Assembly (NCBI GenBank): GCA_030608825.1
Contig: JAUWDL010000007.1
Location: 1-13,701 of the forward strand
Origin: Gemmatimonadales bacterium
GTDB taxonomy: Bacteria; Gemmatimonadota; Gemmatimonadetes; Palauibacterales; Palauibacteraceae
Reading direction: 5' to 3'
Length of the DNA stretch: 13,701 nucleotides
Below, piece after piece: positions 6,714 to 13,701 of the stretch. Each line of letters starts with the position of its first letter. Position 1 is the stretch's first letter. The position numbers and the translations under genes were made by a program. The notes under the pieces were generated by a model. It saw nothing but the letters and a program-made list of their open reading frames with translations. It was not told the DNA's origin and did not search any database.

Positions 6714-6773
6714 CCAAGCGCGAAGGCCCGCTGGTCCAAGTCGTTGCAACCTCTGCCCGGCTCGACCCGTCCT

Positions 6774-9227
6774 ATGAGCGTGGAGACGTTTCTGAAGGAT
6801 CTCCGGTTCTCGATTCGCACCCTGCTCAGGCGGCCGGGCTTCGCCATCGTGGCCGCGCTGACCATCGCGCTGGGAATCGCCGCCAACACGGCGATCTTCA
6901 GCGTGGCCAACGCCGTACTTCTCGAGCCCCTGCCGGTGAGCGATCCCGATGATCTCTTCGTTCCCGACGTCATCGCCCCCTCCGGCTTCTCGATATCGCT
7001 TTCCATCCCGAATTTCAGGGACTGGAGCCAGAGAACCCGCACCTTCGAGTCCTGGGGTGCGAACGCTGGACGCTGGCGCACGCTCACGGGGGGCGATCGT
7101 CCGGAGGTAATCCGCATCCGGCTGGTGCTCGGCGACTTCTTCCGGACGCTGGGAGTCTCGGCGGCACTGGGGCGGACCTTCACGGGGGATGAGACGTGGG
7201 AGGGCGCAGAGCCGGTCGCCGTCGTGACCCATCGCTTTTGGGAGGGGCGTCTCGGATCCGACCCGGACGTCCTCGGAGGCTCCATCACGCTCGATGGCCA
7301 GCCGTATACCATCATCGGGGTGATGGCGCCCGAGTTCGTCTTCCCCAGCGCGGACACGGAAGTATTCCTTCCGATGGGGTTCTTCTCCGATCAGATGTGC
7401 TGGGAGGAGCGTGGTTGCTCGCAGGGCACATGGGCGATCGCCCGCCTCGCCGCCGGCTCGACTCTCGCGCTGGCGCAGGAGGAGATGGATCGCGTGACCC
7501 GCGAGATCACCGAGGAGGAGGGCAATCAGCAGGCGGTGGCGCGCCTGGAGACGCTCGAGCAGGCTTACGTGGGGGACGTCCGTACGCAGATCTGGATCCT
7601 GATGGGTGCCGTCGTCTTCGTGCTCCTCATCGCCTGTGCGAACGTGGCGTCGCTTCTGCTCGCCCGGGGCGAGAGCCGGCGGCAGGAGATGGCGTTACGG
7701 ATGGCGATCGGAGCCGGACGGGGGCGTATCGTCCGTCAGCTGCTCACCGAGAGCACGGTGCTCGCGCTCGCCGGCGGCCTTCTGGGCGTGCTCCTGGCAT
7801 TCCTCGCAGTCCGGCTCATGATCCCGAGGCTCCCGGATGCGATCCCGTCTCTGATGGCCGAGCGGGTCGGCTTGGACCTGGACGTTCTGCTCTTCACCCT
7901 CGGGATCGCGCTCTTGACCGGGCTTCTCTTCGGCCTGGCGCCCGCGTTGCGGGGATCTCGTCACGATCTGAGCCAGGAGCTCAAGGAGGGAGGACGTGGC
8001 GGGACGGCCGGGAAAGGCCGTCAGCGGCTGCGCTCGGCGCTGGTGATCGGCGAGGTGGCGCTGGCCCTCGTCCTCCTGATCGGCGCCGGCCTGATGATCC
8101 AGAGCCTCACGGAGCTCCAGCGGGTGGACACGGGATTCGTCGAGGACAACGTCTTCACCGCTCGCATCTCGCTCCCGGTGTCGGAATACACCGAGAAGGA
8201 ACAAGCCTGGGCCTTCTTCGACCAACTACACGAGAGGCTGGCCGCTCTGCCGGACGCCGAAGCCGTCTCGCTATCCAACATCGTTCCCCTGCAGGGCAAC
8301 TCGTGGGAGCAGGCCATCGTGCCCGAGGGGGTGCCCTTCGAGCCGGAGCACTTGGAGTCGGTCTTGTTCCACATGGTCAAGCCCGACCACTTCGATGTGC
8401 TCGGCATCGAGCTGGTGAGGGGAAGCGCGTTCACGGACGCGGACCGCGAGGAGAGCCCGCCGGTGTGCGTGATCGACGAGACGATGGCCGATAAGTTCTG
8501 GCCCGGCGAGGACCCGATCGGGAAGCGTGTCGCGTTCGAGATCACGGAGGACTCCGATTTCGACAACCCGGTCCCCATCTACCGAACGGTCGTCGGCGTC
8601 GCCCGAAACGTCCGCCACTACGAGCTCGAGAATCCTTCACGCGTCCAGGTCTACGTGCCCTTCAACCAGAGCGGGCGAGCCTGGTCGAACCAGATGTTCG
8701 TCCTCGTGAAGACGCGGGACGACCCGCTCCAGCTGACCCAGCTCGTCCGCGAGGAGGTGAGCGCGCTCCACTCCGACGTGCCGCTCCACTCCGTGCAGAC
8801 GATGCAGGACTATGTTCGAGAGGCGATGGCCGGAACGCGCTCCACGGGCTCCCTGCTGGCTCTCTTCAGCGCCGTGGCCCTCCTGCTCTCAGCCATCGGG
8901 ATCTTCGGCGTCATGTCGTTTTCCGTGGTCCAGCGGGTGCGCGAGATCGGGATTCGGATGGCTCTTGGAGCCAGCTCCTCGCAAGTGCTCCGGATGATCT
9001 CCCGCCACGGTCTGATCCTGGGCGGACTCGGGATCGGGCTCGGCCTCCTGACGGCTCTGGCGCTCACGCGTCTGCTCGCCGGTCTGCTCTACGAGGTCAA
9101 CCCGATCGACCCGGCGACCTATGCGGGCTTCTCCGCTTTTCTCCTGGCGATCGCGCTGCTCGCCTCCTACCTGCCGGCCAGGCGTGCGACGCGCGTGGAT
9201 CCCGCCGTCGTGCTCCGAGAGGAGTAA
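6774..9227 (+). CDS. ADOP-type ABC transporter permease (duplicated MacB-core/FtsX architecture)
   Basis: An 817-residue inner-membrane protein made of two similar halves. In each, a membrane helix leads into a periplasmic MacB-like core domain and then an FtsX-type membrane region. The first helix is at about 22-45 (within it LTIALGIAANTAIFSVANAV), the first FtsX region at about 270-392, the second half starts with a helix near 425-445, and the last FtsX region covers about 692-817, ending YLPARRATRVDPAVVLREE. This matches the 'acidobacterial duplicated orphan permease' type. Known relatives with ATPase partners export macrolides, peptides or lipoproteins, or drive periplasmic machinery; the substrate here is unknown. 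No ATP-binding subunit gene is adjacent. The start is ATG 6774, where the family's usual N-terminus begins; a TTG at 6744 would add 10 residues. The gene follows ppsR by 60 bases with no evident terminator between them. Confidence 0.88.
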   Translation: MSVETFLKDLRFSIRTLLRRPGFAIVAALTIALGIAANTAIFSVANAVLLEPLPVSDPDDLFVPDVIAPSGFSISLSIPNFRDWSQRTRTFESWGANAGRWRTLTGGDRPEVIRIRLVLGDFFRTLGVSAALGRTFTGDETWEGAEPVAVVTHRFWEGRLGSDPDVLGGSITLDGQPYTIIGVMAPEFVFPSADTEVFLPMGFFSDQMCWEERGCSQGTWAIARLAAGSTLALAQEEMDRVTREITEEEGNQQAVARLETLEQAYVGDVRTQIWILMGAVVFVLLIACANVASLLLARGESRRQEMALRMAIGAGRGRIVRQLLTESTVLALAGGLLGVLLAFLAVRLMIPRLPDAIPSLMAERVGLDLDVLLFTLGIALLTGLLFGLAPALRGSRHDLSQELKEGGRGGTAGKGRQRLRSALVIGEVALALVLLIGAGLMIQSLTELQRVDTGFVEDNVFTARISLPVSEYTEKEQAWAFFDQLHERLAALPDAEAVSLSNIVPLQGNSWEQAIVPEGVPFEPEHLESVLFHMVKPDHFDVLGIELVRGSAFTDADREESPPVCVIDETMADKFWPGEDPIGKRVAFEITEDSDFDNPVPIYRTVVGVARNVRHYELENPSRVQVYVPFNQSGRAWSNQMFVLVKTRDDPLQLTQLVREEVSALHSDVPLHSVQTMQDYVREAMAGTRSTGSLLALFSAVALLLSAIGIFGVMSFSVVQRVREIGIRMALGASSSQVLRMISRHGLILGGLGIGLGLLTALALTRLLAGLLYEVNPIDPATYAGFSAFLLAIALLASYLPARRATRVDPAVVLREE

Positions 9228-9240
9228 CGCTGAACTCCAT

Positions 9241-9254
9241 TGACAATATCGTCA
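9241..9254. promoter_or_regulatory. Palindrome 1, candidate operator overlapping the -35
   Basis: TGACAATATCGTCA has dyad symmetry in 6 of 7 base pairs (TGAC arms around an AT-rich centre) and covers five bases of the TTGACA -35. MarR-family dimers typically bind such 14-20 bp inverted repeats, so binding here would block RNA polymerase. Assignment to the adjacent MarR protein is an inference. Confidence 0.45.
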
Positions 9255-9258
9255 GGTA

Positions 9259-9273
9259 GGTTAATATTTAACC
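9259..9273. promoter_or_regulatory. Palindrome 2, candidate operator overlapping the -10 region
   Basis: GGTTAA-TAT-TTAACC is a perfect 6+6 inverted repeat with a 3-base centre. It overlaps the TAATAT -10 candidate and lies directly upstream of TATAAA. Its centre is about 18.5 bases from the centre of palindrome 1, and the arm sequences of the two differ, so they may be sites for one relaxed-specificity protein or for two different ones. Confidence 0.5.
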
Positions 9274-9322: not shown

Positions 9323-9931
9323 ATGGAAGCCCAGAACGGATATCGGCGCACCTGGCTCGAGGCCGCCAACGACCTCGTCGGCAGCACGCAGATCTTCTCC
9401 TCCACGATCGACGCGCTGATCCAGATACGCCTATCCGAGGGTGGCGATCCTCTCCTGACGCTCGGCCAGCTCAAGCTCATACAAATCGTTGACCTCGTTG
9501 AGGCGCCCACCCTCAGCGACGTGGCTCGTCTGCTCGATGTCAGCCCGGCTGCGGCCAGCAAAGCCGTGGACCGGCTCGTCGGGCGGAATCTGCTCCACCG
9601 GACGGCGGCGGAGACCGATCGTCGAGCGCTCCACCTCTCGCTTACCGATGACGGAAGGCTCGTCCTCGAGGAGTACGCGGAGTTGAAGCAGGGCATGTTG
9701 ATGGAGCTCTTCGAAGGACAATCAAAGAGCGAGCTTCGGGACATCGCCAACTTTCTCGACCGACTCTCCGTGCAGTTGATCGCGTGGAACGATGATCCGC
9801 CCGACAAGTGCATGCGATGCGGAATCTACTTCCGCCGCAAGTGCGTCCTGCGCGAGCGGTTTCCGCACGCATGTCCCTACCACTCGAGCTGGCGGCGGAC
9901 GGCTACGTCAGAGGTGGGCGCCCCAATGTAG
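9323..9931 (+). CDS. MarR-family transcriptional regulator with C-terminal four-cysteine tail
   Basis: A 202-residue protein, longer than the usual 140-160 of MarR proteins. Residues 47-115 form the winged helix-turn-helix: TLGQLKLIQIVDL, then APTLSDVARLLDVSPAAASK (61-80) as the helix-turn-helix, and ETDRRALHLSLTDDGR (97-112) as the wing with the family's D-x-R pattern. After the dimerisation helix comes an extra tail with C163-x2-C166-x7-C174-x9-C184-x2-H187, a set of ligands suited to a zinc ion or an iron-sulfur cluster. The gene starts at ATG 9323 with AGGG 8 bases upstream, is preceded by two palindromes in its promoter, and lies 36 bases before hdrC on the same strand. It is therefore likely to regulate itself and the Hdr operon. 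The ligand and whether it represses or activates are not shown. Confidence 0.88.
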   Translation: MEAQNGYRRTWLEAANDLVGSTQIFSSTIDALIQIRLSEGGDPLLTLGQLKLIQIVDLVEAPTLSDVARLLDVSPAAASKAVDRLVGRNLLHRTAAETDRRALHLSLTDDGRLVLEEYAELKQGMLMELFEGQSKSELRDIANFLDRLSVQLIAWNDDPPDKCMRCGIYFRRKCVLRERFPHACPYHSSWRRTATSEVGAPM

Positions 9932-9967: not shown

Positions 9968-10549
9968 ATGAGGCCGAACATCCGAACGGAGGCCGACCGC
10001 AGCCCCGAATTCGCTCACTGGATCACGAGCCTGCCCGGTGCGGAGAAGATTCGGGAATGCATGCACTGCGGCCTCTGCAGCGCCAGCTGTCCCCTCTTCG
10101 CCTACATGGACTACAGCCCCCGCCAGCTGATGTACCTCGGGCGGGAGGGCTTCCGCGACGACGTCCTCGGGAGCTTCACCATCTGGCTCTGTACGAGCTG
10201 CTACCAGTGTACGGTGGAGTGCCCGCGGCAGATTCCCGTCACAGAGATCATGTACGCCCTCAAGCGGCGGGCGATAGAGGAGAAGACGTACCCCAAGCGC
10301 CTGGCGATCCCCGTGCTGGCGCGCGAGTTCCGCCGCATGGTTTACGACAGGGGGCGAATCAGCGAAAGCTGGCTGGTCATGAAGCTGATGCTGAAGACCG
10401 GGATCCACCGGATGTTCGGCATGGTCGGGCTGGGATGGAACCTCCTGCGCACGGGGCGCTTCTCGCTGCGCAGGGAGACCATTCGGCATCGCGGCGATCT
10501 GGCCCGCATGCTGGAGGCAGTCGGGCACGACTCGGAGGTGGTGCCATGA
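9968..10549 (+). CDS. hdrC: Heterodisulfide reductase-like subunit C (two [4Fe-4S] ferredoxin-type)
   Basis: A 193-residue cytoplasmic iron-sulfur protein. Two classical C-x2-C-x2-C-x3-C-P motifs are present: CMHCGLCSASCP (C31, C34, C37, C41) and CTSCYQCTVECP (C75, C78, C81, C85), followed by a mostly helical C-terminal part. In HdrABC complexes this subunit passes electrons from the flavin subunit HdrA to the catalytic subunit HdrB. The ATG at 9968 has a strong GGAGGGG 7 bases before it. The stop overlaps the hdrB start by 4 bases (ATGA), so translation is coupled. The order C-B-A-mvhD identifies it as HdrC rather than a succinate dehydrogenase or glycolate oxidase iron-sulfur subunit. Confidence 0.93.
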   Translation: MRPNIRTEADRSPEFAHWITSLPGAEKIRECMHCGLCSASCPLFAYMDYSPRQLMYLGREGFRDDVLGSFTIWLCTSCYQCTVECPRQIPVTEIMYALKRRAIEEKTYPKRLAIPVLAREFRRMVYDRGRISESWLVMKLMLKTGIHRMFGMVGLGWNLLRTGRFSLRRETIRHRGDLARMLEAVGHDSEVVP

Positions 10550-11424
10550 AGAAGCTGGCTTACTACCCCGGCTGCTCCCTGACGGGAACGGGTCGGGCCT
10601 ACGACGAATCCCTGCGTGCGGTGTTCGCCGCGTTGGGCGAGCCGCTCGAGGAACTGGATGACTGGAACTGCTGCGGCGCGACCTCCTACATGTCGATCGA
10701 CAAGGCGAAGGCCTACGCCCTGGCCAGCAGGAACCTGGCCCTCGCCGAGCGGGAGGAGGCGGATCTTCTCACCCCGTGCAACGCCTGCTATCTCGTCCTC
10801 GAGAAGACTCGCCGCCATCTGGCCGATTCCGCCGAAATGGGTCAGCGCGTCCAACATGCGCTCGACGCCATCGGGCTCCGCTACGAGGGAAAGGTCCGGA
10901 TCCGTCACCCTCTAGAGATCCTGACGCGGCAGATCGGTGTGGAGCGGATCAAGGAGGCCGTGAAGGAGCCCCTGAAGGGCCTCAAGGTCGCGCCCTACTA
11001 CGGCTGCCAGGTCGTGCGGCCGTACGCGACGTTCGACGACCAGTACGATCCGCAGACGATGGATCAGCTGTTGAAGGCAACGGGCGCCAAGGTCGTCGAC
11101 TACCCGTTCAAGACGCGATGCTGTGGGGCCAGTCAGACGGGGACGCTCCCCAAGGTGGGGCTGCACCTCGTGTACCGGCTTCTCAAGGAGGCTCAGGACC
11201 GCGGCGCGGATGTCATGGCGGTGATCTGCTCACTCTGCCAATTCAACCTCGACGTCTACCAGAGCAAGCTCAGGCGGGTGTACGACCTTCCGCCGATCCC
11301 GATCCTCTACTTCCCGCAGATCCTCGGACTGGCGCTCGGAATCCCGGCGGACGAGCTGGGCATCGACCGATGCGTCGTGAGCGCGAGACCCGTCCTGGAA
11401 AGGAGGGCGGCCCATGCTGCGTGA
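10546..11424 (+). CDS. hdrB: Heterodisulfide reductase-like subunit B (two CCG domains)
   Basis: A 292-residue protein of two cysteine-rich (CCG) domains. The first has C10, C42-C43-G, C78 and C81 (in CNAC); the second has C154, C192-C193-G, C228 and C231 (in CSLC). In structurally known HdrB these two sets hold the unusual noncubane [4Fe-4S] clusters that cleave the heterodisulfide CoM-S-S-CoB. All ten cysteines are present, so full catalytic capacity is expected. A bacterium without those coenzymes would use another disulfide or acceptor, which is unknown. The start is ATG 10546 with GGAGGTG just upstream, overlapping the end of hdrC by 4 bases; the 3' end overlaps hdrA by 11 bases. Confidence 0.94.
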   Translation: MKKLAYYPGCSLTGTGRAYDESLRAVFAALGEPLEELDDWNCCGATSYMSIDKAKAYALASRNLALAEREEADLLTPCNACYLVLEKTRRHLADSAEMGQRVQHALDAIGLRYEGKVRIRHPLEILTRQIGVERIKEAVKEPLKGLKVAPYYGCQVVRPYATFDDQYDPQTMDQLLKATGAKVVDYPFKTRCCGASQTGTLPKVGLHLVYRLLKEAQDRGADVMAVICSLCQFNLDVYQSKLRRVYDLPPIPILYFPQILGLALGIPADELGIDRCVVSARPVLERRAAHAA

Positions 11425-13459
11425 GAACGGTTTCGGCCCCGACCCGCTGACGAACGGCGATCCGAGCGACGGCGATCTGACCAACGGCGATCCGCCGGTC
11501 CGTATCGGCGTCTACGTGTGCCACTGCGGGACCAACATCGCGCGCACGGTCGACGTACTACGGGTTACCGAGAAGGCCGGCAAACTGCCGGGCGTGACCG
11601 TTGCCCGGGACTACAAGTACATGTGCTCCGATCCGGGACAGGAGCTGATCAAGGAGGACATCGAGGAACTCGGCCTGAACCGGATCGTCGTCGCCTCCTG
11701 CTCGCCCAACCTGCACGAGGGAACCTTCCGCGGCGCGACCGCTGCGGGAGGGCTCAACCCCTTCTTCTTCCAGATGGTCAACATCCGGGAGCACGCCTCC
11801 TGGGTGCACGAGGACCGCGAGTCGGCTACGGAGAAGGCCATCGATCTAGTTCGTGCAGCCGTGCGCCGTGTGCACCACCACAAGGCATTGGAGACCCGGC
11901 GGGTGCCGATCCGCCCCGAAGCCCTGGTCGTCGGCGCGGGGATCGCCGGTATCACGGCAGCCCTGACCCTGGCCGATGCCGGGAAGCACGTCTACCTGAT
12001 CGAGCGGGAGGCCTCGATCGGCGGCCACATGGCGCAGTTCGACAAGACCTTCCCCACCCTCGACTGCGCGGCCTGCATTCTGACGCCGAAGATGACGCAG
12101 GTGAGGAACCACCCGAACATCACGCTGATGACGATGACGGACGTGGTGAAGGTGGATGGCTACGTCGGGAGCTACGAGGTCACGGTCAAGCACCGCCCGC
12201 GCTACATCGACGCTTCGCTCTGCGTCGGATGCCAGCTGTGTGTCGACGCCTGTGTCTACAAGCGGGGCAAGTTCGAAGACGAGTTCGACCTCGGCCTCTC
12301 CATGCGCAAGCCGATCTACCTTCCCAACGCGCAAGCCGTGCCGCAGGTCGTCCTGATCGACCCCGAGCAGTGCATCCAGTTCAGCTCCGGCAAGTGCAAG
12401 CAGACCTGCATCGAGGCCTGCGACCGGGACGCGATCTTCCTGGACCAGGAGGAACAGGTCGAGACCCTGGAGGTCGGCGCGATCATCCTCTCCACCGGCT
12501 TCCAGACCTTCGATCCGCGCCGCTCCCCGCACTACGGCTACGGCGTCTACCCGAACGTCTACACGGCGCTCGAGGTGGAGCGGCTGGTCAACGCCTCGGG
12601 CCCGACCGACGGCGAGATCGTGCTGCGCGACGGCGAGAAGCCCACGTCCGTGGGGATCGTGCACTGCGTGGGCAGCAGAGATGAGAAGACCAACCCGTGG
12701 TGCTCCAAGGTGTGCTGCATGTACTCGCTGAAGCTCGCGCACCTGATCAAGGAGAAGACGGACGCGGAGGTCTACAACTTCTACATCGACATGCGCACGC
12801 CCGGTAAGGGTTTCGAGGAGTTCTACCAGCGCATCGCCAGCGAGGGAACGCACCTGATCCGAGGCAAGGTCGCCTCGGTCTACCAGCCCGCCGATGGAGA
12901 CGGCGAGCTGCTCGTGGACGTTGAGGACACGCTCGCCGGAATGGTGCGGCGGATCCCGGTCGACATGCTGATCCTGGCGGTGGGCCTGGAGCCGCGGGCC
13001 GACGCCGAGGAGGTCCGGCGGACCTTCAACATCACCTGTTCCGGCGGCGGATGGTTCATGGAGCGCCATCCCAAGCTGGCGCCGGTGGAGACGTTCACCG
13101 ACGGGGTGTACCTCGCCGGCTGCTGCCAGGGACCCAAGGACATTCCCGAGACGGTTGCCCAGGCCGGGGCCGCTGCGGGGCAGGCGCTGGCCTTGATCGA
13201 CCGGGCCTACATCGAGCTGGAGCCCAACACGGCCCACGTGATCGCCGAGGACTGCTCGGGCTGCAAGACCTGCATCCCCCTCTGTCCCTACCAGGCGATC
13301 CTCCATGACGACGAAAACGACCGGGCGGAGATCAACGAGGTCCTGTGCAAGGGCTGCGGCGTGTGCGTCGCAGCCTGTCCTTCCGGATCCATCATCCAGA
13401 ACCTCTTCGAGGATGCGGAGATCTACGAGGAGATCGAGGGGGTGTTGGCATATGCTTGA
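11414..13459 (+). CDS. hdrA: Heterodisulfide reductase-like subunit A (FAD, multiple [4Fe-4S]); electron-bifurcating flavoprotein
   Basis: A 681-residue cytoplasmic flavo-iron-sulfur protein. An N-terminal cluster domain (C36-H-C38-G-T-N, C71, C96) is followed by the FAD-binding motif [19 protein letters not shown] (172-190) and [20 protein letters not shown] (203-222), typical of HdrA. An inserted ferredoxin domain has C270/C273/C276/C280 and C320/C328/C332/C336. The thioredoxin-reductase-like fold then continues (HCVGSRDEK, 417-425; VCCMYSLK, 433-440; [20 protein letters not shown], 562-581). A C-terminal two-cluster ferredoxin has C614/C617/C620/C624 and C645/C648/C651/C655. In the studied complexes the FAD here splits electron pairs between HdrB and ferredoxin. 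The start at 11414 is set by AAGGAGGG 7 bases upstream; it gives an acidic Asn-Gly-Asp-Pro-repeat leader of about 28 residues. The last clusters of the inserted domain lack the usual Pro after the final Cys. Confidence 0.95.
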
Positions 13460-13701
13460 GCAAGCCGAAGAGTTCGAGCCCCGAATCGTGGCGCTGTTCT
13501 GCAACTGGTGCACCTACATGGCGGCCGACCTGGCCGGCACCGCGAGGATGAAGTACGCCCCGAACGTCCGGGTCGTCAGGGTCATGTGCTCGGGGCGCAT
13601 CGATCCGCAGTTCGTAATGCACGCGTTCTCGCGCGGCGCCGACGGCGTGCTGATCGGCGGATGTCACCCCGGCGACTGCCATTACCAGGAGGGCAACTAC
13701 G
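13452..13701 (+). CDS. mvhD: MvhD-type [2Fe-2S] electron-transfer subunit (3' end outside window)
   Basis: The first 83 residues of an MvhD/FrhD-family protein; the frame is open to the window end, and the family is usually about 140 residues. Conserved features visible are [13 protein letters not shown] (C17, C20), VMCSGRIDP (C46) and [10 protein letters not shown] (C71, C76), the cysteines that hold the [2Fe-2S] cluster. In methanogens MvhD carries electrons from a [NiFe] hydrogenase or formate dehydrogenase to HdrA; in many bacteria it sits with HdrABC and other donors. The start is ATG 13452, overlapping the hdrA stop by 8 bases, with a GGGGG run about 8 bases upstream. The gene for the electron donor should follow outside the window. 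Confidence 0.93.

What the first reader, a model, noticed from the sequence alone, without database searches (positions are those of the whole stretch)
9806..9885. MarR regulator with an extra four-cysteine tail next to an iron-sulfur electron-transfer operon
The sequence shows C163-x2-C166-x7-C174-x9-C184 (plus H187) after a complete MarR fold, a tail that ordinary MarR proteins lack. Cys clusters of this kind bind Zn(II) or [4Fe-4S]/[2Fe-2S]. Placed in front of hdrCBA-mvhD, which need many iron-sulfur clusters and work at low potential, the tail could sense oxygen, redox state, iron supply or a thiol/disulfide. This would be a possibly undescribed sensory variant of the family; novelty is my inference and has not been searched.
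Basis: partly seen in the sequence, partly recalled or inferred. Interest (0 to 1): 0.72.

Follow-up and report, generated by a model that had tools for sequence, protein, structure and literature searches.

The report
MarR regulator with conserved four-cysteine tail
A bacterial DNA-binding switch protein carries an extra, strictly conserved four-cysteine tail that probably holds a metal or iron-sulfur centre, and in this lineage it sits at the head of a hydrogen/electron-transfer operon that it most likely switches on and off.

Summary
Window 9323-9931 encodes a 202-aa MarR protein with C163-x2-C166-x7-C174-x9-C184 after a complete MarR fold. All 222 homologues listed keep the exact four-cysteine spacing, and in 336 genomes every strong hit of the tail profile (15) is this MarR lineage. 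H187 is not conserved. The gene heads hdrC-hdrB-hdrA-mvhD, which continues on another contig with mvhG-mvhA-protease: a hydrogenase-heterodisulfide reductase operon. Seven of 19 tail-MarR genes lie in or beside such clusters; for the other 12 none was seen in the stretches read. Tail-MarR genomes carry [NiFe] hydrogenase more often than others (14/17 versus 96/378). A palindrome GTTAA-TAT-TTAAC covers the -10 box of a consensus promoter just upstream; of eight genomes tested, three have one perfect copy each, always there. That suggests a local autorepressor. What the cysteines bind is not settled: an Fe-S centre sensing oxygen/redox is my leading reading, structural Zn the main rival. Structure prediction gave the tail only moderate confidence. 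MarR-type Fe-S sensors are known (ChlR), with other cysteines. Verdict: a new variant of a known kind; the paper searches made showed no description of it.

The parts
9240..9267 (+). sigma-70-like promoter: TTGACA (9240-9245), 16-nt spacer, TAATAT (9262-9267)
   Evidence: 10 of 12 matches, shuffles mean 0.1 (sd 0.4); same promoter in same-genus locus L027
9260..9272 (.). candidate operator GTTAA-TAT-TTAAC, perfect inverted repeat covering the -10 box
   Evidence: only perfect site in the held (82.7% complete) genome; also once each in G120 and G131, each upstream of the tail-MarR gene; none in five other genomes tested
9323..9931 (+). MarR-family regulator, 202 aa
9809..9874 (+). four-cysteine tail, residues 163-184, C-x2-C-x7-C-x9-C
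9968..10549 (+). hdrC, heterodisulfide reductase subunit C-like (4Fe-4S dicluster)
10546..11424 (+). hdrB, CCG cysteine-rich domain
   Evidence: PF02754; overlaps hdrC by 4 nt
11414..13459 (+). hdrA, 681 aa, HdrA2-like flavoprotein
   Evidence: NF040770, 814.6 bits, below the cut-off of 1100
13452..13701 (+). mvhD, start only (cut by the contig end; start codon read by eye); operon continues on G000:C45 (L044) with mvhD end, mvhG, mvhA, protease
   Evidence: the same-genus MvhD in L027 is PF02662

Best explanation
A homodimeric MarR-type local repressor whose subunits each carry, after the last dimerisation helix, a four-cysteine tail that binds one metal centre. Shown: the conserved Cys4 tail, its restriction to this MarR lineage among strong hits in the genomes scanned, the operon order, and a promoter whose -10 box lies inside a palindrome. 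Inferred, in falling order of certainty: (1) the protein binds the palindrome 9260-9272 and represses its own gene and the hdrCBA-mvhDGA operon behind it (and, where present as in L027, possibly the divergent hydrogenase operon); (2) the four cysteines bind one centre; (3) the centre is an oxygen- or redox-sensitive Fe-S cluster whose state sets DNA affinity, so that the oxygen-sensitive, low-potential hydrogenase-Hdr complex is made only under anoxic or reducing conditions. The polarity (which cluster state binds DNA) is not known.
For: Cys4 exact in 222/222 listed homologues; the four Cys, F170 and R171 invariant in 33 tail rows that include divergent ones (in the 222 position 170 is F in 191 and Y in 31). 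Tail profile hits at E below 1e-11 in 15 of 336 genomes, each on the tail-MarR gene. Gene heads an hdr-mvh cluster in G000, G120, G315 and G131, heads its remnant in G353, and lies about 0.6 kb downstream of the hydrogenase large-subunit match in G175 and G302, with hypB-, hypF- and hypC-type genes after it in G302. [NiFe] hydrogenase in 14/17 tail-MarR genomes versus 96/378 others, Fisher 2.7e-6; by genus 12/15 versus 49/123, p=0.0034. On the tree the linked genes are not one clade. One homologue, P0153, is joined to HypC. Operator over the -10 box. Precedents for Fe-S sensing by small winged-helix regulators: ChlR, ArnR, SufR.
Against: For 12 of 19 tail-MarR genes no mvh/hdr genes were found beside them in the stretches read, and HypC, present in 8 of those 12 genomes, lies on another contig or more than 140 kb away. 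The C-x2-C-G knuckle resembles zinc-ribbon/rubredoxin knuckles (recalled); weak matches of the tail are zinc fingers (PDB; Pfam GATA zinc finger at E 0.052 for P0103), though the window tail's own weak Pfam match is Fer4, E 0.28. The tail model is of moderate confidence. Five of eight genomes tested have no perfect operator, and the reversed control pattern occurs once in G131 and twice in G353, so the motif is firm only for G000, G120 and G131, and it was chosen after looking at these upstream regions. Shuffled labels are as clustered on the tree as the linkage in 67 of 500.
Confidence: 0.45

Rival explanations
1. Structural zinc tail: the four cysteines bind one Zn(II) that folds a small knuckle stabilising the dimer or touching DNA; the signal is an ordinary MarR small-molecule ligand.
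For: C-x2-C-G-[IV]-[YH]-[FY] knuckle, G167 in 222/222 listed homologues; weak matches of the tail to zinc-finger knuckles; the tail occurs in several contexts unrelated to hydrogenase.
Against: The weak matches are at chance level or below cut-off; the second half C-x9-C is not a second CxxC knuckle; enrichment with hydrogenase genomes and operons needs a separate reason; G167 is replaced by S or D in 5 of 16 loci while the four Cys never are.
Confidence: 0.35
2. Thiol/disulfide or metal-stress switch: the four cysteines form disulfides, or bind Zn/another soft metal reversibly, and so sense oxidants or metals directly (like OhrR/SarZ-type cysteine switches, but in the tail).
For: Cysteine-based sensing is established in the MarR family (OhrR and SarZ, passages).
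Against: Four invariant cysteines with fixed spacing plus R171 in 222/222 and an aromatic residue at 170 suggest a folded site; known MarR thiol switches use one or two cysteines in the core (recalled).
Confidence: 0.12
3. Operon neighbour by chance: the regulator controls something else (itself, or distant genes) and only happens to lie in front of hdr in this genus.
For: 12 of 19 tail-MarR genes showed other neighbours; 7 of 11 genomes with this type of HdrB lack a tail-MarR match.
Against: Similar linkage in other families and MarR subtypes; the palindrome at the promoter is the only perfect one in the held genome; 36-nt gap between the MarR stop and hdrC.
Confidence: 0.08

Closest known systems
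ChlR (cyanobacterial MarR-type oxygen sensor; passages of the reviews PMC4500134 and PMC13421787 seen, original papers not held)
   Same: MarR-type dimer; proposed [4Fe-4S] centre altered by oxygen; binds a palindrome; controls genes for low-oxygen life
   Different: 135 aa; proposed ligands Cys18 and Cys25 near the N-terminus, two per subunit; an activator of tetrapyrrole genes; motif TTMCC-N3/4-GGWAA, not GTTAA-N3-TTAAC. The window protein has no cysteine before residue 163
ArnR (Corynebacterium; passages of PMC12343034 seen)
   Same: N-terminal winged helix reminiscent of MarR/ArsR, C-terminal cysteines, [4Fe-4S], anaerobic respiration
   Different: three conserved cysteines (179, 193, 223) in a separate sensory domain; mostly Actinobacteria; narKGHJI and hmp targets
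SufR (cyanobacteria; passages of PMC13421787 seen)
   Same: repressor with cysteine-held [4Fe-4S]; a reduced cluster lowers DNA affinity; autoregulated
   Different: C164/C171/C206 with wide spacing; sufBCDS operon; motif CAAC-N6-GTTG
AdcR/ZitR zinc-dependent MarR regulators
   Same: MarR fold; metal-dependent
   Different: metal sites in the core, no Cys4 tail (recalled); NCBIfam model score 42 against a cut-off of 175
MvhADG-HdrABC (group 3c-like [NiFe] hydrogenase-heterodisulfide reductase; group name recalled) operons
   Same: gene content hdrCBA-mvhDGA-protease of the operon behind the regulator
   Different: I do not know of a methanogen system with a MarR of this kind (recalled, not searched)

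Membership tests
MarR family | MarR winged-helix domain above the curated cut-off | tested here: met
   PF01047 36.1 bits, cut-off 24.6
MarR family | MarR fold with N- and C-terminal dimerisation helices | tested here: met
ChlR-type [4Fe-4S] MarR sensor | N-terminal cysteine pair (Cys18/Cys25 in Synechocystis) | tested here: not met
   first Cys of the window protein is 163; ChlR positions
ChlR-type [4Fe-4S] MarR sensor | oxygen-labile [4Fe-4S] cluster | not testable with these tools
   needs purified protein
ArnR | three Cys at 179/193/223 | tested here: not met
   four Cys at spacing 2, 7, 9; ArnR
SufR | C164/C171/C206 pattern | tested here: not met
AdcR zinc-dependent MarR | NCBIfam NF038251 above cut-off | tested here: not met
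   42 bits against 175
Zinc-finger/Fe-S domain families in Pfam | tail matched by a curated model above cut-off | tested here: not met
   window tail alone: only Fer4, E 0.28, 11.5 bits against 21.1; in P0103 GATA zinc finger, E 0.052, 13.6 against 26.8
Known fold for the tail | structural match of residues 160-190 to a solved domain | tested here: inconclusive
   tail pLDDT 57-70; listed matches cover mainly 8-160; the tail was not modelled alone

The most novel reading that the evidence does not exclude
An undescribed class of MarR regulators with a C-terminal four-cysteine Fe-S cluster module (C-x2-C-G-I-Y-F-R-x2-C-L-x-R-x6-C) that senses oxygen or the low-potential redox state and locally controls hydrogenase-heterodisulfide reductase operons, recruited to such operons more than once in Gemmatimonadota and, judging by a few source names (Terriglobales, Terriglobia, Bryobacteraceae), present in acidobacteria too.
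Probability: 0.38. Interest if true: 0.65.

Novelty: new variant of a known kind. Interest (0 to 1): 0.5.

Why it matters
How uncultured soil and subsurface bacteria decide when to make oxygen-sensitive hydrogenase-Hdr complexes is, as far as I know, largely open. A small one-component regulator with a built-in, invariant metal-type site, a likely single operator and an obvious target operon makes that question directly testable in vitro, and would add a second, differently placed cluster module to the MarR family, where Fe-S sensing is so far known to me only from ChlR.

Tried and rejected
Tail as a C2H2 zinc finger: PDB hits for the tail (best E 0.00074) are sums of many weak tandem matches, best single-domain i-Evalue about 80 among the three shown; rejected as chance. 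PDB hit of the tail profile to ORF59a covers 12 residues, E 0.088; not significant.

Tail as a mobile module on other proteins: not found, with limits. Tail profile in 336 genomes: 15 hits at E below 1e-11, all the MarR genes; six more at 1e-3 to 1e-2 are short partial matches and were not examined. G353 and G337 are not among the hits; whether they were in that draw is not shown. The region search had only 13 candidates, all near relatives (12 with MarR domains, one 121-aa fragment, P0013), so it says little about other proteins. Tail-MarR in viral contigs: 44 pattern matches, none confirmed; plasmids: no match at 1e-10 with query P0103. The genome-contig scan gave one weak relative (L001, 24% identity), not examined.

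H187 as a fifth ligand: rejected, H in 110 of 222.

Tail tied strictly to hdrCBA-mvhD: rejected; 7 of 19 loci. Limits of the other 12: several lie near contig ends (for example L029, L031, L035, L036, L041, L109), and neighbours were sought by tblastn with hdr, mvh, hyb and Nuo-type queries; hyp genes were checked by HypC alone. Three weaker profile hits (G130, G032, G362) are MarR proteins without the tail and were left out of the 17 counted for the Fisher tests; G416 and G431 came from the class search and are in the 19, not in the 17.

Operator family-wide: only partial. 10/10 in window, L027, L034; 9/10 in L024; 8/10 in L026 and L037; 7 or fewer, reached by 7 to 100% of background windows, in the other 10 of the 16 regions (the L036 region was short). 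In L032 and L033 the gene seems to lie inside an operon, so an own operator is not expected there.

Cysteine convergence in the model could not be measured, no coordinates are given. Rfam: nothing over threshold in the window. Literature: searches listed no paper whose title or abstract start describes a MarR with a C-terminal Cys4 tail; the library holds open-licence papers only. SlyA (PMC12506092, passages) senses aromatic metabolites, not by cysteines.

Full report
What is there. Window 9323-9931 (+) encodes a 202-aa MarR-family protein (PF01047 over cut-off at residues 45-102). Its only cysteines are 163, 166, 174 and 184. AlphaFold2 with 36 and then 113 aligned sequences gives a confident MarR core (ten-residue means 84-97 for residues 11-150) with a last core helix at 135-155, and a tail of moderate confidence (57-70 for residues 161-190) with a short helix 175-179. 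PDB structure matches are MarR-type proteins; the alignments listed span mainly residues 8-160.

Conservation. The first search found 288 relatives, the profile search 1695; the best 120 of each were listed, 222 different proteins. All 222 keep C-x2-C-x7-C-x9-C exactly; G167 and R171 are also in 222 of 222, I168 in 217, R177 in 217; position 170 is F in 191 and Y in 31; H187 is H in 110. These lists favour near relatives. Genome loci reach further: 16 of 16 keep the four cysteines although position 167 becomes S or D in five of them (L025, L026, L032, L033, L037). In 33 tail rows, six of them from divergent loci, the invariant residues are the four Cys, F170 and R171.

The tail belongs to one MarR lineage. 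In 395 Gemmatimonadota genomes (phylum of the window, named by the source of P0006) the full profile matched 20; 17 carry the tail and three (G130, G032, G362) are MarR proteins without it. The class search added G416 and G431, 19 in all. The tail profile alone, in 336 genomes, hit 15 places at E below 1e-11, every one the tail-MarR gene, one per genome; six further hits at 1e-3 to 1e-2 are short partial matches, not examined. No Pfam or NCBIfam model covers the tail.

The operon. hdrC starts 36 nt after the MarR stop; hdrC-hdrB, hdrB-hdrA and hdrA-mvhD overlap. The contig ends inside mvhD; another contig of the same assembly, C45 (L044), starts with the end of mvhD and carries mvhG, mvhA and a maturation protease, in the order seen without a break in the same-genus genome G120 (L027). 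In L027 MvhD is PF02662 (methyl-viologen-reducing hydrogenase delta subunit), MvhG PF01058, MvhA PF00374 and the protease PF01750. This is an MvhADG-HdrABC-type [NiFe] hydrogenase-heterodisulfide reductase operon. In L027 a second [NiFe] hydrogenase operon (large subunit, protease, small subunit, Fe-S protein, NrfD) runs divergently from the same intergenic region; in the window that place is taken by a MacB/FtsX-type permease (6744-9227), and the only PF00374 matches in the own, incomplete genome are two pieces of one frame, mvhA on C45.

Linkage elsewhere. Of the 19 tail-MarR genes, seven are in or beside mvh/hdr clusters: G000, G120, G315 and G131 at the head of hdrC-hdrB-hdrA..., G353 at the head of a remnant in which an hdrC start runs into the end of mvhA and the protease (deletion or misassembly), G175 about 0.6 kb after hdrA-mvhD-mvhG-hydrogenase large subunit, and G302 about 0.6 kb after a partial large-subunit match at the contig start, with hypB-, hypF- and hypC-type genes following. 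Two others stand opposite a gene with Fe-S (Fer4_11) and NrfD domains, 35-45% identical to HybA/HybB of L027 (L035, L037), and one is near a multihaem/cytochrome b gene (L036). The rest have other neighbours: an era-like GTPase (L024, L028) with adenylate kinase and H+-pyrophosphatase on the other side in L024, a Na+/H+ exchanger (L029, L108, L109), acetate-kinase-family genes (L030, L031), a glutamate-synthase-like flavoprotein (L025); G226 is a contig-edge fragment with no query match but MarR in 6.8 kb. HypC occurs in 8 of these 12 genomes but on another contig or more than 140 kb away, so in those genomes any link to hydrogenase would have to act at a distance. In the tree of 46 proteins the seven linked genes need four changes of the label, at least two forced by well-supported branches, while shuffled labels are as low in 67 of 500: the linkage is not one clade, and the label is not strongly clustered.

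Statistics. [NiFe] hydrogenase (PF00374) occurs in 14 of 17 tail-MarR genomes and 96 of 378 others (Fisher one-sided 2.7e-6; by genus 12 of 15 versus 49 of 123, p=0.0034; lists compared by hand, test). Relatives of the window's HdrB occur in 4 of 17 versus 7 of 378 (p=6.5e-4; by genus 3 of 15 versus 5 of 123, p=0.042). Genomes are related and partly incomplete, so these are indications. HdrB clusters without a tail-MarR match exist (L058-L065, seven genomes); in L061 and L062, both of one genome, response-regulator-like genes lie upstream by eye.

Promoter and operator. Upstream lies TTGACA-16-TAATAT (10 of 12; shuffles 0.1), the same in L027. The -10 box lies inside the perfect inverted repeat GTTAA-TAT-TTAAC (9260-9272). 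Perfect GTTAA-N3-TTAAC occurs once in G000, once in G120 and once in G131, each time just upstream of the tail-MarR gene, and not at all in G315, G353, G158, G199, G050; the reversed control pattern occurs once in G131 and twice in G353. Looser versions stand upstream in L024 (9/10), L026 and L037 (8/10). The motif was found after inspecting these regions. A palindrome over the -10 box is a usual place for a repressor (general knowledge); a single perfect site per genome suggests a local autoregulator.

How it most likely works. I take it as a dimeric repressor of its own operon whose tail binds one metal centre per subunit. Shown: conservation, lineage restriction, operon, promoter/palindrome geometry. 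Inferred: DNA binding, repression, one joint metal site, Fe-S nature, oxygen/redox signal. Fe-S is favoured by the company of oxygen-labile, low-potential enzymes and by precedents; Zn is favoured by the CxxCG knuckle and by the many other contexts. I put the Fe-S sensor at about 0.45, structural Zn at 0.35.

Known relatives in function. ChlR is a MarR-type regulator with a proposed [4Fe-4S] oxygen sensor, but 135 aa with Cys18/Cys25 as proposed ligands (passages of PMC4500134 and PMC13421787). ArnR (PMC12343034, passages) and SufR (PMC13421787, passages) are [4Fe-4S] regulators with other cysteine patterns. None of my seven searches of the paper library (listings, apart from the passages named) showed a MarR with a C-terminal Cys4 tail. 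[quoted passage not shown] a new variant of a known kind.

Noticed in passing
window 6744-9227 and L027 10404-16193: Between the syntenic PpsR gene and the MarR promoter the window has a MacB/FtsX-type permease, where the same-genus genome G120 has a divergent [NiFe] hydrogenase operon of about 5.8 kb.
   Followed up: partly
L026 10300-11085: In G353 the tail-MarR is followed by an hdrC start running straight into the mvhA end and a maturation protease: an internal deletion of most of the hdr-mvh operon, or a misassembly. Described only.
   Followed up: partly
P0153 (281 aa): A tail-MarR reading frame joined to a HypC (hydrogenase maturation) domain; a fusion or an adjacent gene without a stop between.
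   Followed up: no
L029, L108, L109: A subgroup of tail-MarR genes stands next to a Na+/H+ exchanger gene (PF00999), with a diguanylate-cyclase gene beyond in L029: a different conserved neighbourhood.
   Followed up: partly
L034 11350-13322 and L066 10219-12182: A sensor-like protein (by eye) and a response regulator (PF00072 in L034) sit between mvhD and mvhG inside the hydrogenase cluster of G131 and G315.
   Followed up: no
L023 1289-3661: PHP, CBS-HATPase and two DRTGG proteins follow the NuoE/NuoF-like genes in the hdr cluster of G315.
   Followed up: no
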